64,000 nucleotides of DNA from Solirubrobacter phytolaccae (GTDB taxonomy: Bacteria; Actinomycetota; Thermoleophilia; Solirubrobacterales; Solirubrobacteraceae): contig NZ_JAPDDP010000008.1 of NCBI RefSeq assembly GCF_027587195.1, positions 1 through 64,000 on the forward strand, written 5' to 3'. The translations under genes and the position numbers were made by a program. Positions 26,898-63,984 of the stretch are shown here, piece by piece. The notes beneath the pieces were generated by a model. It saw only the letters and a program-made list of their open reading frames with translations. It was not told the origin of the DNA and ran no database searches. The stretch's first letter is position 1. Every line of letters starts with the position of its first letter.

Positions 26898-28116
26898 CGT
26901 GCCAGGCCGCGGTCGCGAGCGCGACGGCCGCGATGAAGCCCGCGTAGCCGGCCACTGCGGCGCCGAGTGAGACGACGAGGGTCAGGAGCCCGATCGAGAT
27001 CACCGCGGTCGCCACGCCCAGGTAGATGAGCGTGTACGAGGCGGCGTTGACCGCGCCGCGACGGTCGGGCGGGGCGGCGTGGTTGAGCTGCGCCTGCGCG
27101 GCCAGGAACGCGAGCCCGTGGCCCGTCCCGGTCAGCAGCGCGGCGACGAGCAGCGCCGCCAGGCTCTCGGCCGGGAACGCGAGGGCGAGCGCACCGAGCC
27201 CGGCGGCGACGAGCACCAGCCCGAGCGCCTGGTCGCGCTCAGGAGCCCGCGCGCGCCCGCGTACGGCGATCTGCGCCACGCACGACGTCGCGAGCATCGT
27301 CCCGCTGATCGCGCCCAGCAGCGCGAGATTCCCCGTGTCCAGCAGCTCCCCGGCGTAGCTCGGCACCACCGACAGGAAGATCGACGCCGTCGCCCACACG
27401 GCGGCCCCGGTCAGGCTGACCCGCACGAACAGCGACCGGATCTCCACCGGCACCCCCGGCCGCTCAATTCTAAAGAGGGACTGTCCCTCTTTAACTTTCG
27501 CGGGCTCTGCGGCGGGCTTCGCGGCCCGCCGCCGGCGCCGCGCGAACATAAAGCGGGACTGTCCCTCTTTAGGTTCGGGGATCGCCAGGGCGGCGGCCGT
27601 GGCGGCGATGCCCAGGGCCGCGAAGAGGGCGAACGGGAGCACGAGGCGGTGCGGGGCCCACTGGGCGAGCAGGCCCGCGATGACCGGGCCCGAGCCGCTG
27701 CCGCCCGCCTGGGCGAGCGAGGTGAAGAGCGCGGCGCGGTCTTCGCTCGGGGCCGGGGCCAGCTCGACCAGCGCGGCCGCCGCGGCGCCCGCGATCATCC
27801 CGACCGCCAGGCCCTGCAGGGCTCGCGCCGCGAACAGCCACGGCAGGCTCTGGGCGGCCGCGAACGTGAGCAGGCCGACCGTCGCCGTCGCGAAGCCCGC
27901 GGCCATCACGCGGCGGCGGCCGTAGCGGTCCGACAGCTGGCCGAACACGAGCAGGGCGGGCGCGAGCACGAGCATGTAGGTCGCGAACACGACCGTCAGC
28001 ACCGCGCTCGAGAAGCCGAACTCGCGCTCGTAGAGCGCGTACAGCGGCGTCGCCAGGTTCGCCCCGGCCATGACCACGAACCAGGCCGTCGCGACCACGA
28101 GGAAGGGCACGCGCAT
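26848..28116 (-). CDS. MFS transporter with two repeat-encoded insertions
   Basis: 422-residue major facilitator with about 12 hydrophobic helices and the loop-2/3 motif FGQLSDRYGRRRVM, typical of drug-efflux-like MFS proteins. The central cytoplasmic loop (residues about 185-220) contains two copies of a KEGQS(L/R)F-type peptide coded by palindromic repeats at 27471-27493 and 27549-27571; frame is preserved and the loop tolerates them. ATG at 28116, divergent from the cytochrome gene by 57 bases. Substrate unknown. Confidence 0.88.
   Translation of the reverse strand: MRVPFLVVATAWFVVMAGANLATPLYALYEREFGFSSAVLTVVFATYMLVLAPALLVFGQLSDRYGRRRVMAAGFATATVGLLTFAAAQSLPWLFAARALQGLAVGMIAGAAAAALVELAPAPSEDRAALFTSLAQAGGSGSGPVIAGLLAQWAPHRLVLPFALFAALGIAATAAALAIPEPKEGQSRFMFARRRRRAAKPAAEPAKVKEGQSLFRIERPGVPVEIRSLFVRVSLTGAAVWATASIFLSVVPSYAGELLDTGNLALLGAISGTMLATSCVAQIAVRGRARAPERDQALGLVLVAAGLGALALAFPAESLAALLVAALLTGTGHGLAFLAAQAQLNHAAPPDRRGAVNAASYTLIYLGVATAVISIGLLTLVVSLGAAVAGYAGFIAAVALATAAWHVRADRADRRAPHAPRR
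27471..27493. repeat. 23-bp palindromic repeat, copy 1, inside the MFS gene
   Basis: Perfect 11-base arms TAAAGAGGGAC and GTCCCTCTTTA around one T. It is markedly AT-richer than its surroundings and lies in frame in the MFS central loop (coding KEGQSLF on the minus strand). Looks like an inserted interspersed palindrome. Confidence 0.85.
27549..27571. repeat. 23-bp palindromic repeat, copy 2, inside the MFS gene
   Basis: Same element with one arm mismatch (TAAAGCGGGAC with GTCCCTCTTTA), 55 bases from copy 1 and again in frame (KEGQSRF). Same spacing of arms and central T. Confidence 0.85.
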
Positions 28117-44178: not shown

Positions 44179-44961
44179 TCAGGCTCCGGTGAATCGCGGG
44201 GCTCGTTTCTCGACGAACGCCGTGACTCCTTCGAGGAAGTCGGCCGTGCGCGCCGCCCCGTGCTGGATCTCGGCCTCGAGCTCGAGCTGCTCCTTGAACC
44301 GGTTGAAGGACCAGGCGTTCAGCTGGCGCTTGGAGCCCGCGTACGAGCGCGTCGGGCCGCTGGCCATGCGCTGCGCGAGCTCCTCGGTGTTCGCCAGCAG
44401 CGCGTAGTCCTCGATGACGCGGTTGATCAGGCCCCACTCCAAGGCCTGGCGCGCCGGCACCTTCTCGCCCAGCAGCGCCATCTCCGACGCGCGGGCGAAC
44501 CCGATCCGCTCCGGGATGAGGAAGCTCGAACCACCGTCGGGCACGAGACCGATGTTCACGAACGCGAGCATGAAATACGCCGATTCGGCCGCGAGGACGA
44601 GGTCCCCGGCGAGCGCGAACGAGATCCCGATCCCCACCGCCGGCCCGTTGACCGCGGTGATCACGGGCTTGTCCATCGTCCGCAGGCCTTCGATGATCGG
44701 GTGGAAGTGGTCGCGCAGCGCCGCCTGCACGTCCGGCCGTCCGTCCTCGGCCGGGTCGAAGCCCGATTTGAGGTCCGCGCCGGAGCAGAACGCCTTCCCC
44801 GCGCCCGTGAGGATCACGGCCCGGATGTGAGGATCCGCGGCGCTCTCTTCGACGGCCTGGCGGAGCTCGTCACGCAGCTCCGTGTTCGCGGCGTTCATCG
44901 CCTCGGGCCGGTTCAGCGTGATCGTGCACACGGCGCCGTTGCGCTCCACTTGGACGGTCAT
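44179..44961 (-). CDS. Enoyl-CoA hydratase/isomerase family protein
   Basis: 260-residue crotonase-fold enzyme of acyl-CoA metabolism. CoA-binding and oxyanion stretches: AVILTGAGKAFCSGADLKSGFD and NGPAVGIGISFALAGDLVLAAESAYFMLAFVNIGLVPDGGSSFL. The position corresponding to one catalytic Glu is occupied in VPDGG by Asp, as in PaaG-like members. ATG 44961; divergent from the peptidase gene by 40 bases. Confidence 0.92.
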   Translation of the reverse strand: MTVQVERNGAVCTITLNRPEAMNAANTELRDELRQAVEESAADPHIRAVILTGAGKAFCSGADLKSGFDPAEDGRPDVQAALRDHFHPIIEGLRTMDKPVITAVNGPAVGIGISFALAGDLVLAAESAYFMLAFVNIGLVPDGGSSFLIPERIGFARASEMALLGEKVPARQALEWGLINRVIEDYALLANTEELAQRMASGPTRSYAGSKRQLNAWSFNRFKEQLELEAEIQHGAARTADFLEGVTAFVEKRAPRFTGA

Positions 44962-45001
44962 GGGTGTGATTGTGCTGCAAGTCGGGGTAGTCCATTGGCC
45001 T

Positions 45002-45736
45002 ATGCCGTTTGCGCGACGCCCCCGGATCGGTCTCTGCACCGCGCTCGAGCGGGCGCGCTGGACCGTCTGGGACCGCGAGGCCTTCCTGCTCTCGCGGGCG
45101 TACGTCGACGCGCTCCAGGGCGCGGGCGCGATCGCGATGATGCTTCCGCCCGACGAGTGGGTCGCCGACCATCCCGACGACGTGCTCGAGGGGTTGGACG
45201 GCCTCATGCTCGCCGGCGGCGCCGACATCGACCCGTCCTCCTACGGCGGCCCGCGGCACCCCAAGGTCACCAACACCCGGGTGGACCGTGACCGTGCCGA
45301 GATCGCCCTGTTCACGCGGGCGCTGGAGCGCGACCTGCCCGTGCTGGGAATCTGCCGCGGGATGCAGCTGATGAACGTCGCCCGCGGCGGGACGCTGATC
45401 CAGCACCTGCCCGAGGACGTGGGGCACACGGACCACCGGCGTGCGCTCGGCTCGTTCGACAATGCGGATCACGACGTGCGCCTGGAGCCGGGATCTTTGG
45501 CCGCCCGGGCGTGTGGAGAGACGCTGCACGCGACCAAGTCGCACCACCACCAGGCCGTCTCCGACCTGGGGGAGGGCATCGTGGCCTCGGGCTGGAGCGT
45601 GCTGGACGACCTCGTCGAGGCGATCGAGCTGCCCGAGACCGCGTGGGCCTTGGGCGTGCAGTGGCACCCGGAAGTGGACCCGCGGTCACGGGTCGTGCGC
45701 TCGTTCGTGCACGAAGCGGCGCTGGTCGCCGCGTGA
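45002..45736 (+). CDS. Gamma-glutamyl-gamma-aminobutyrate hydrolase-like peptidase C26
   Basis: 244-residue class I amidotransferase-fold hydrolase (PuuD-like), cutting gamma-glutamyl bonds. Nucleophile Cys in VLGICRGMQLMNVARGG, His/Glu in GVQWHPEVD, plus the family stretches LAGGADIDPSSYG and SHHHQAVSDLG. ATG 45002. Followed by the long hairpin block. Confidence 0.92.
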   Translation: MPFARRPRIGLCTALERARWTVWDREAFLLSRAYVDALQGAGAIAMMLPPDEWVADHPDDVLEGLDGLMLAGGADIDPSSYGGPRHPKVTNTRVDRDRAEIALFTRALERDLPVLGICRGMQLMNVARGGTLIQHLPEDVGHTDHRRALGSFDNADHDVRLEPGSLAARACGETLHATKSHHHQAVSDLGEGIVASGWSVLDDLVEAIELPETAWALGVQWHPEVDPRSRVVRSFVHEAALVAA

Positions 45737-45932
45737 ACGTCAACGGCTGAGCACACCGTCGGGCGTCGCGTCAAGCAATTCATGCCCAAGCGTGGGCGGA
45801 GAGCGTTGCGGGCGTCAGGAATTGCTTGACCCGCCGCGGCCGGCGCGCTGATGGGCTGGTCAGGAGGGTTCCCCTCGCTGTGGGAACGCCGTGCGTTCCC
45901 CCGTCTCGTATGGCGAGGGCCGGTTTCGCGGA

Positions 45933-45979
45933 GGGTGTGTCCCGAAACCTTCCCGTAAGGACGGTTTCGGGACACACCC
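45933..45979. repeat. Hairpin H2 of the nested block (17-bp perfect stem)
   Basis: Arms GGGTGTGTCCCGAAACC and GGTTTCGGGACACACCC around 13 bases. Central left member of the mirror-ordered hairpins. Confidence 0.9.
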
Positions 45980-45999
45980 CACGATCAGGCCGGGAAGGA

Positions 46000-46048
46000 G
46001 GGGTGTGCCCGGAAACTCCCGCTATGCGGGAGTTTGGGGACACACCCC
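46000..46048. repeat. Hairpin H3 of the nested block
   Basis: Inner 10-base stem AAACTCCCGC/GCGGGAGTTT with loop TAT, and outer GGGGTGTG-type arms that pair with a few mismatches. It shares the GGGTGTG/CACACCC ends with H2. Confidence 0.88.
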
Positions 46049-46332
46049 CTCGCCGAACGGTCACGGGTGGTCCTTCGTGATCGATCTGAGGTGAACGCCT
46101 GAGCGTTCACTCAGTGAGGGGAACCCTCCTCACCCGCCCAGATCACGCCGGCCGCGCCGGGTCAAGAAATTCCTGATCCGGCCGCGCGATGCACGAGCGT
46201 CGCGGGCATGAATTTCTTGACGCGGCGCCCGACGGTGTGATCAGAAGTTGGGTCCCTGCAGCCCGCCCCAAGATGAGAAATGGGGCTGGCCGTACCAGGC
46301 CCATCCGCCCGACTCGATAAGTTCCTGTCTCC

Positions 46333-47265
46333 GTGCCCCGCTCGACCGCCATCCGCGCGGCCGCCTGCACGGTGCTCGCCGTCGGCCTCGCGGCGCCGTT
46401 GCTCCGCCGTCGGCTCCGCCTGAAGCCGCCCGTGGTGATCGCCGCTGCGGCGGCTACGCCGTTCGCCCTAGGAACGCTCATGCCGCGCAGCCGGACGCGC
46501 GACGTCGGGATGTGCGTGCTGCAGATGTACGCGTATCTGGCGACGTACCAGATGCCCAACGACGATCCGGAGAAGCTCGAGGCGCGGGTCAAGGTCAAGT
46601 ACCCGGTGAGGATCGACCGGGTCATCGGCCTCGGGACCACGCCGACCATGCGCCTGCAGCGGGCGTTCGGCGCCGAAGGGCGGTTCCGCGCGTGGGAGAA
46701 GCTCCTGGTGTTCTCGCACTGGGTGTGGTTCGCCGTCCCGCACGGCACGGTCGCGTACGTGCTGTTCAAGCACCCGAAGCAGTTCCCGACGGCGGCGGCG
46801 CGGATCTACGCGACGTTCGACATCGGCGTGATCGGCTACTGGGCGGTGCCGACCGCTCCGCCGTGGTACGCGGCGCAGCAGGGCCTGATGGAGGACGGCC
46901 GGACGCCGGAGCTGCGGCGGATGATGGTCGAGTACGGCGAGCAGTTCTGGAAGGCGGGCTGGGCGCCTCTGTACGGTGTCTTGGGAGGCAATCCCCTGGC
47001 CGCCATGCCGTCGCTGCACTTCGCCACCTCCGTGACGGCCGCGCACGTCCTGAGCGACACCGGCCGTGGCGCGGGCCTGCTCGGCTGGAGCTACGTGGCC
47101 ACGCTCGGCCTCGCGCTCGTCTACCTGGGCGAGCACTACGTCACCGACCTGATGGCGGGCCTGGCGCTCGCGGAGAGCATCCAGGCCGCGACGCCGAAGG
47201 TATCGCCGGTAGCCCGGCGGATCAGCCGCACGCTGCAGCAGCTCGAGGCGAAGGCCCGGGCATGA
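46333..47265 (+). CDS. PAP2/inositolphosphotransferase-like membrane protein
   Basis: 310-residue membrane protein with about six helices and the PAP2 superfamily residues AMPSLHFATSVTAAH and YLGEHYVTDLMAG (His of the acid-phosphatase motif conserved). Resembles Aur1/Ipt1-type enzymes that move phosphate-linked headgroups. GTG start 46333. The stop overlaps the next gene (ATGA). Confidence 0.85.
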   Translation: MPRSTAIRAAACTVLAVGLAAPLLRRRLRLKPPVVIAAAAATPFALGTLMPRSRTRDVGMCVLQMYAYLATYQMPNDDPEKLEARVKVKYPVRIDRVIGLGTTPTMRLQRAFGAEGRFRAWEKLLVFSHWVWFAVPHGTVAYVLFKHPKQFPTAAARIYATFDIGVIGYWAVPTAPPWYAAQQGLMEDGRTPELRRMMVEYGEQFWKAGWAPLYGVLGGNPLAAMPSLHFATSVTAAHVLSDTGRGAGLLGWSYVATLGLALVYLGEHYVTDLMAGLALAESIQAATPKVSPVARRISRTLQQLEAKARA

Positions 47266-63860: not shown

Positions 63861-63984
63861 GCCTCGATCCGCCTGCCCACCCATAGCCTCGATCGAAAAT
63901 CCGACCACCCTCAGACCCTCCGGTGGGTGCGGGTGGTCGGATTTTCGATCGAGGCGCATCTGGCTCTGGCAGGCGGATCGAGGC
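63861..63984. repeat. Nested 25-bp and 17-bp perfect inverted repeats
   Basis: Inner arms 63886-63910 and 63931-63955 are perfect 25-base inverted copies (starting GCCTCGATCGAAAATCC) with a 20-base loop. Outer arms 63861-63877 and 63968-63984 are 17-base inverted copies (GCCTCGATCCGCCTGCC). The gene-free stretch 63578-64000 is otherwise pyrimidine-rich on the plus strand between 63705 and 63860, with no convincing gene. Confidence 0.9.

What the first reader, a model, noticed from the sequence alone, without database searches (positions are those of the whole stretch)
45752..46239. 488-base mirror-ordered array of six hairpins
Outer inverted arms match in 34 of 36 positions, and hairpins occur in symmetric order on both sides of a pair of long GGGTGTG-type stems. 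There is no gene inside. It may be a MITE-like element, a nested REP/BIME assembly, or a large structured RNA; it could also act as a two-way transcription barrier between 45736 and 46333.
Basis: seen in the sequence. Interest (0 to 1): 0.75.

Follow-up and report, generated by a model that had tools for sequence, protein, structure and literature searches.

The report
Solirubrobacter paired-hairpin mobile repeat family
The 510-base mirror-image stretch is one of at least 46 copies of a non-coding, jumping-gene-like repeat found only in some soil bacteria of the genus Solirubrobacter, built from two inward-facing blocks of hairpins around a swappable centre and sitting mostly where two genes end face to face.

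Summary
In detail: 34/36 arm positions pair, and hairpins run in mirror order (I count eight: P1-P2-P3, two central, P3'-P2'-P1') over about 45737-46250. It is one copy of a dispersed family. The host genome has at least 46 sites; other Solirubrobacter genomes have more, and two of seven have none. It was not found in 57 genomes of 24 other genera of the family. Each copy is two ~175-nt halves that always face inward (37/37 pairs) around 1-3 interchangeable ~50-nt hairpins. Hairpins inside each half are maintained by compensatory changes (98.1% of cells paired, 169 double-change cells, 0/500 shuffles), while the two halves of one copy differ, so the long palindrome itself is not what is conserved. 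Sites are empty, decayed or differently filled in sister species, and copies share mosaic blocks that stop at the element ends: an insertion element that recombines and decays. Copies sit between convergent genes (22/33 versus 41/258 background). No ORF, RAYT link or target duplication was found. Best reading: a new, genus-restricted, MITE/BIME-like non-autonomous element that probably also blocks transcription both ways (inferred). New variant of a known kind.

The parts
45737..46250 (.). whole element, from just after the stop codon of the upstream gene to the end of the outer inverted repeat
   Evidence: 47-nt outer inverted repeat; the site lacks the element in three sister genomes; similarity among copies stops at such ends
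45746..45922 (+). left half-element, read outer to inner
   Evidence: covariance model R1, E 1.4e-33; alignment A1
45749..45850 (+). hairpin P1 of the left half (GAGCACACC...GTCAAG...CTTGAC...GGCGCGCT)
   Evidence: fold -50.8 kcal/mol; compensatory pairs in A1
45858..45880 (+). hairpin P2 of the left half (GGTCAGGAGGGTTCCCCTCGCTG)
   Evidence: compensatory pairs at columns 124-136 and 125-135
45881..45901 (+). hairpin P3 of the left half (GGGAACGC...GCGTTCCC)
   Evidence: compensatory pair at columns 143-162
45932..45980 (.). central interchangeable hairpin 1 (GGGTGTGTCCCGAAACC...)
   Evidence: 20 of 21 nt complementary, fold -39.3; 87-96% alike hairpins in L054, L055, L057
46000..46048 (.). 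central interchangeable hairpin 2 (GGGGTGTGCCCGGAAACTCCC...)
   Evidence: fold -38.3; related hairpins in the differently shelled elements L087-L092
46069..46245 (-). right half-element, read outer to inner on the minus strand
   Evidence: covariance model R1, E 1.1e-34
46090..46111 (-). hairpin P3 of the right half (GTGAACGC...GCGTTCAC)
46112..46135 (-). hairpin P2 of the right half
46141..46243 (-). hairpin P1 of the right half
   Evidence: fold -69.4 kcal/mol
44882..45736 (+). upstream gene, Peptidase_C26 (class-I glutamine amidotransferase type); likely true start near 45002; its TGA stop abuts the element
   Evidence: Pfam PF07722 E 6e-60; codon-use start 45002
46333..47265 (+). downstream gene, PAP2-superfamily protein
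   Evidence: Pfam PF14378 E 5e-24

Best explanation
It is one copy of a non-autonomous mobile repeat family of the MITE/BIME kind, restricted to part of the genus Solirubrobacter. Shown: an element is two structured ~175-nt halves (hairpins P1, P2, P3) always facing inward around 1-3 exchangeable hairpins; it lies mostly at gene 3' ends, especially between convergent genes; sister species lack it, have degraded it, or carry a different version at the same site. Inferred: a transposase or recombinase supplied in trans recognises the structured ends (near-invariant CACACC and GCGTCAAG in P1); copies then exchange interiors by recombination and shrink by deletion at the palindromes; the two halves of a copy are kept different because a perfect 500-bp palindrome is unstable; insertions survive where they cut no promoter or reading frame, and there they probably act as two-way transcription barriers. 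In the window it would separate the C26 peptidase gene from the PAP2 gene.
For: At least 46 sites with a half-element in the host genome; model R1 gives 96, 93, 31, 10 and 10 half-matches in five Solirubrobacter genomes and none in two, none in 57 genomes of 24 other genera of the family, 5 of 232 genomes of the order by BLAST, and only S. taibaiensis in a scan of 84,980 named species genomes, from which the host's own records may be left out. Orientation inward in 37 of 37 pairs. Covariation: 98.1% of cells paired against 30-46% when slid, 169 double-change cells against 56 shuffled (0/500), column pair 6-108 shows G-C, T-A, C-G and A-T. Window site empty in G001, G002 and G003 but filled by a different version in S. 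taibaiensis. Of the type 1/2 sites mapped to G003, 17 have both flanks aligned and no recognisable half, nine with 60 bp or less between the flanks; remnants are visible at four; ten other sites hold halves in both species. Blocks of 91-98% identity end at element ends and break inside elements. Convergent neighbours 22/33 against 41/258, p = 3e-9. Halves of one copy differ at column 6 in 12/12 and are less alike than halves of different copies, 71.7% against 76.4%.
Against: No transposase, autonomous copy or target-site duplication was found, so movement is inferred from empty sites and dispersed near-identical blocks. The 'empty' state could in part be loss of an ancestral element: ten sites are shared with G003 and several 'empty' sites hold remnants. 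The barrier role has no transcript evidence.
Confidence: 0.7

Rival explanations
1. It is chiefly a functional bidirectional terminator/insulator module: selection for ending transcription between convergent genes maintains the hairpins, and spread by recombination is secondary.
For: Convergent genes in 22/33 own and 10/19 S. taibaiensis copies, ends often 2-20 bp from stop codons, compensatory hairpin changes, very strong stems. At some orthologous 'empty' sites G003 has a simple hairpin instead, e.g. GAACATGAAGGTGCC..GGCACCTTCATGTTC at the L060 site.
Against: No U-tract and no terminator-like site by consensus. Most assessable sites lack the element in the closest relative, some with only 1-25 bp between the convergent genes, so the role is dispensable. 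Some copies lie beside intact ordinary hairpins (L058, L064). Convergent bias is also known for REP dimers (PMC3733652, PMC1525189).
Confidence: 0.2
2. It is a REP/REPIN/BIME system mobilised by a RAYT (Y1) transposase of this genome.
For: Inverted pairs of hairpin units, heterodimer preference and location within 20 bp of convergent 3' ends are all reported for REP dimers (PMC3733652). Two Y1_Tnp genes are present.
Against: Both Y1 genes are flanked by different palindromes (AAAGAGGGACAGTCCCTCTTTA; CCAGGGCCTTTAAG) and no half-element. No GTAG tag at the ends. Halves are ~175 nt, not 20-40 nt.
Confidence: 0.06
3. It is a large structured non-coding RNA or a pair of RNAs.
For: Strong covariation. 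On the inner-to-outer strand 97 A-C mismatches become G-U and only 8 go the other way.
Against: That asymmetry comes from about four columns, including the near-invariant CACACC end whose partner arm drifts; rare mismatches are even, about 12 against 8. Changes are nearly all Watson-Crick to Watson-Crick. No Rfam family reaches threshold and no promoter-like site was found. Site turnover between species.
Confidence: 0.04

Closest known systems
REP dimers, REPINs and BIMEs (GTAG/CGTC REP super-families)
   Same: non-coding palindromic units in inverted pairs, mosaic assembly, heterodimer preference, location at 3' ends and between convergent ORFs, turnover between species (PMC3733652; PMC1525189; REPINs PMC3116915, abstract only)
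   Different: half-unit ~175 nt with three hairpins instead of 20-40 nt with one; terminal AACGGC runs instead of a GTAG tag; interchangeable central hairpins; not linked to the genome's RAYT genes
MITEs / foldback elements
   Same: short non-coding element with terminal inverted repeats, dispersed in intergenic sites, empty orthologous sites
   Different: no target-site duplication seen, no parent transposon found, inverted repeats are hairpin domains that differ between the two ends
Modular intergenic repeats of other bacteria (RIME, Deinococcus SNR, Correia; from my own knowledge)
   Same: genus-restricted, modular, palindromic, intergenic
   Different: unrelated sequence as far as recalled; obligate inward-facing pair around exchangeable hairpins not known to me there
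Bidirectional intrinsic terminators between convergent genes
   Same: location and strong stems
   Different: no U-tract, dispensable and mobile

Membership tests
MITE | terminal inverted repeats | tested here: met
   47 nt at 89% here; CACACC near-invariant at the outer end of all halves
MITE | no coding capacity | tested here: met
   internal ORFs have no Pfam match; central stretches of 54-371 bp are hairpins
MITE | dispersed copies and empty sites | tested here: met
MITE | target-site duplication | tested here: inconclusive
   none seen at the cleanest junctions, L054 and L082 among others, but boundaries blur in AACGGC runs
MITE | parent transposon sharing the ends | tested here: not met
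   no half pair enclosing a transposase-like ORF in the copies examined; the genome is a 169-contig draft
REP/REPIN | RAYT gene flanked by the same repeat | tested here: not met
   L093 and L094 carry other palindromes
REP/REPIN | GTAG tag and 20-40 nt unit | tested here: not met
   ends are (AACGGC)n-GCTGA/GGCGA-GCACACC, half ~175 nt
REP/REPIN | inverted (heterotypic) dimers near convergent 3' ends | tested here: met
   37/37 inward pairs; 12/12 heterotypic at column 6; convergent excess
intrinsic terminator | hairpin followed by T-tract | tested here: not met
   0 found in 45200-46800
intrinsic terminator | stops transcription | not testable with these tools
   no transcript data
structured RNA | match to a described RNA family | tested here: not met
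   no Rfam match at gathering threshold; best sub-threshold hits are microRNA-like hairpins
structured RNA | G-U tolerance on one strand | tested here: inconclusive
   97 against 8 but from about four columns

The most novel reading that the evidence does not exclude
A distinct class of mobile element whose two obligatory, different, three-hairpin ends are recognised as structures by an unknown enzyme in trans, and which acts as a socket in which 50-nt hairpin modules are exchanged, so that a bacterial genus keeps a shifting set of hairpin arrays in its convergent intergenic slots.
Probability: 0.15. Interest if true: 0.7.

Novelty: new variant of a known kind. Interest (0 to 1): 0.5.

Why it matters
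It shows that bacterial intergenic palindromes can be much larger and more ordered than REP/BIME units, with obligate inward-facing partners and exchangeable centres. The heterotypic halves bear directly on an open remark in the REP literature, that heterodimer preference has no obvious explanation (PMC3733652): here local hairpins are maintained while the long palindrome is kept imperfect. The family also gives matched filled and empty sites in close species, which makes its effect on transcription and its mode of movement directly testable.

Tried and rejected
Known RNA family: none at threshold. RAYT-driven REP: the two Y1 genes have other flanking palindromes. Autonomous copy: L206/L074 with a 1.1-kb interior has only hairpins and a GC-rich tandem repeat, no transposase-like ORF by inspection (no family search was run on those ORFs). 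Target-site duplication: looked for at about 19 junctions, none convincing. RNA from G-U excess: strong in total but carried by about four columns, so not used. Homogenised arms: rejected, halves of one copy are less alike than halves of different copies. A first gene caller missed the upstream window gene and was replaced; its hairpin census is not used. Literature search found no description of such repeats in Solirubrobacter among the open papers held.

Full report
What was checked. The stated arms pair in exactly 34 of 36 positions, and the inverted repeat extends to 47 nt at 89%. The stretch folds far better than shuffles (z = -19.5 as RNA, -20.1 as DNA) and holds the longest inverted repeats of the window. 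It lies between the stop codon of a Peptidase_C26 gene and the start of a PAP2-family gene, both on the plus strand. ORFs inside or overlapping it have no Pfam match.

It is a family. A BLAST of the element against the host genome gives 125 matches; with the covariance model R1 96 half-matches are found, which I group into at least 46 sites. Among seven genomes of the genus, five carry it (96, 93, 31, 10, 10 half-matches) and two do not. None of 57 genomes from 24 other genera of the family matches, and 5 of 232 genomes of the order match by BLAST. An exact-pattern scan of named species genomes hits only Solirubrobacter taibaiensis, 20 loci (records of the host itself may be left out there). 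The host is therefore most likely a Solirubrobacter.

Anatomy. 58 complete half-elements were aligned, read from the outer end inward. Each half has a long hairpin P1 with near-invariant CACACC and GCGTCAAG, a small hairpin P2 and a hairpin P3. The consensus structure has 34 pairs; 98.1% of cells pair against 30-46% when partners are slid by 1-3 columns; 11 pairs and 169 cells carry changes on both sides, more than in any of 500 shuffles. The best pair, columns 6-108, occurs as G-C (35), T-A (12), C-G (10) and A-T (1). Related sequences inflate such counts, but the slid control keeps relatedness. The two halves always face inward, 37 of 37 neighbouring pairs, with 54-371 bp (median 147) between them. 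That middle holds one to three hairpins of about 50 nt which differ completely between copies in their upper stems. The window copy has two of the GGGTGTG type. Outside the core many copies have one to about ten tandem AACGGC hexamers; a second subtype has a CGTCGGGGAGCACACC end with a longer outer arm, and a third, differently shelled set (L087-L092) shares the central hairpin type.

The long palindrome is not what is conserved. In all 12 copies with two complete halves the halves differ at column 6, which breaks the left-right pair but keeps both local pairs, and halves of one copy are less alike (71.7%) than halves of different copies (76.4%; 1.8% of permutations as low). So selection or mutation maintains the local hairpins, and copies are heterodimers. 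That a perfect 500-bp palindrome would be unstable is an inference from general knowledge.

Where copies sit. Around the host copies 22 of 33 with two neighbours lie between convergent genes (six of these 33 are the differently shelled set), against 41 of 258 gaps in a 300-kb contig of a sister species (p = 3e-9) and 6 of 57 in the window; in S. taibaiensis 10 of 19. Of eight further host sites six look convergent. Ends are often 2-20 bp from stop codons. The gene calls are my own codon-usage calls, not an annotation.

Turnover of sites. The window site is empty in G001, G002 and G003 and filled by a differently built copy in S. taibaiensis. Probes from 34 host sites were placed in G003, the closest relative by the one protein compared (96% identity against 91% in G001/G002). 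Excluding the differently shelled set, 17 sites have both flanks aligned and no recognisable half, nine of them with 60 bp or less between the flanks; remnants of ends survive at L058, L062, L073 and L078; ten sites carry halves in both species, usually with different centres. At L054 and L082 the empty site has 5 and 1 bp where the host has about 490 and 414 bp. No target-site duplication is visible.

Exchange between copies. Copies share blocks of 91-98% identity, such as L054/L060 (229 bp, 98%), L063/L082 (366 bp, 96%) and L059/L065 (279 bp, 98%), whose outer limits are the element ends and whose inner limits fall inside the element. This is what dispersal plus recombination among copies would leave.

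What moves it is unknown. The two Y1 (RAYT-type) genes of the genome are flanked by other palindromes and no half-element. No pair of halves encloses a transposase-like ORF in the loci read. The near-invariant outer arm CACACC against a drifting partner arm (columns 8-106 and 10-104) looks like a protein-recognised end, an inference.

Comparison. REP dimers share the inverted heterotypic arrangement and the place next to convergent 3' ends (PMC3733652; PMC1525189), but have 20-40 nt units, a GTAG or CGTC tag and, for the GTAG kind, a RAYT. MITEs share the terminal inverted repeats, lack of genes and empty sites, but normally have target duplications and a parent transposon. So it works like these, and is a new variant rather than a member of the REP family in the strict sense.

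Function. Strong stems at convergent 3' ends suggest a two-way barrier to transcription; this is inferred, there is no T-tract, and sister species do without it at most assessable sites. I put mobile non-autonomous element as the identity (0.7) and transcription barrier as a likely by-product.

Noticed in passing
window 27470-27572: Two AAAGAGGGAC-GTCCCTCTTTA palindromes, the same kind that flanks the RAYT-type gene at L093: a separate, ordinary REP family with its own RAYT.
   Followed up: partly
window 63886-63955: A 28-bp, 96% hairpin GCCTCGATCGAAAATCCGACCACCCTCA near the window end, probably an ordinary terminator or another repeat.
   Followed up: no
L087-L092 (host C157, C33, C96, C78, C92, C66): A second family of long mirror-image elements with another shell (AACAACGGCCATCGAGGGGGAAGGGAGC) but the same GGGGTGTG central hairpin type, five of six between convergent genes.
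   Followed up: partly
L070:2480-2545 and L039:1440-1510: Expanded AACGGC hexamer runs (about ten and eight copies) at element ends, a likely variable microsatellite.
   Followed up: no
L046 (sister genome G003, C2:616160): Two elements appear fused in tandem at one site, with a short CCACG tandem repeat between them.
   Followed up: no
L206:3958-4600 (host C22:40457): An overgrown copy with several central hairpins and a GC-rich GACGGGCCGCGCGGCCGG tandem repeat.
   Followed up: partly
host contigs C44, C88, C109, C36, C129, C91, C165, C99, C131: Contigs end within about 100-800 bp of a copy, so these palindromes seem to break the assembly and the copy number is a lower bound.
   Followed up: no
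L060 site in G003 (L177): The orthologous empty site holds a simple perfect hairpin GAACATGAAGGTGCC..GGCACCTTCATGTTC, as if such intergenic gaps favour some hairpin.
   Followed up: no
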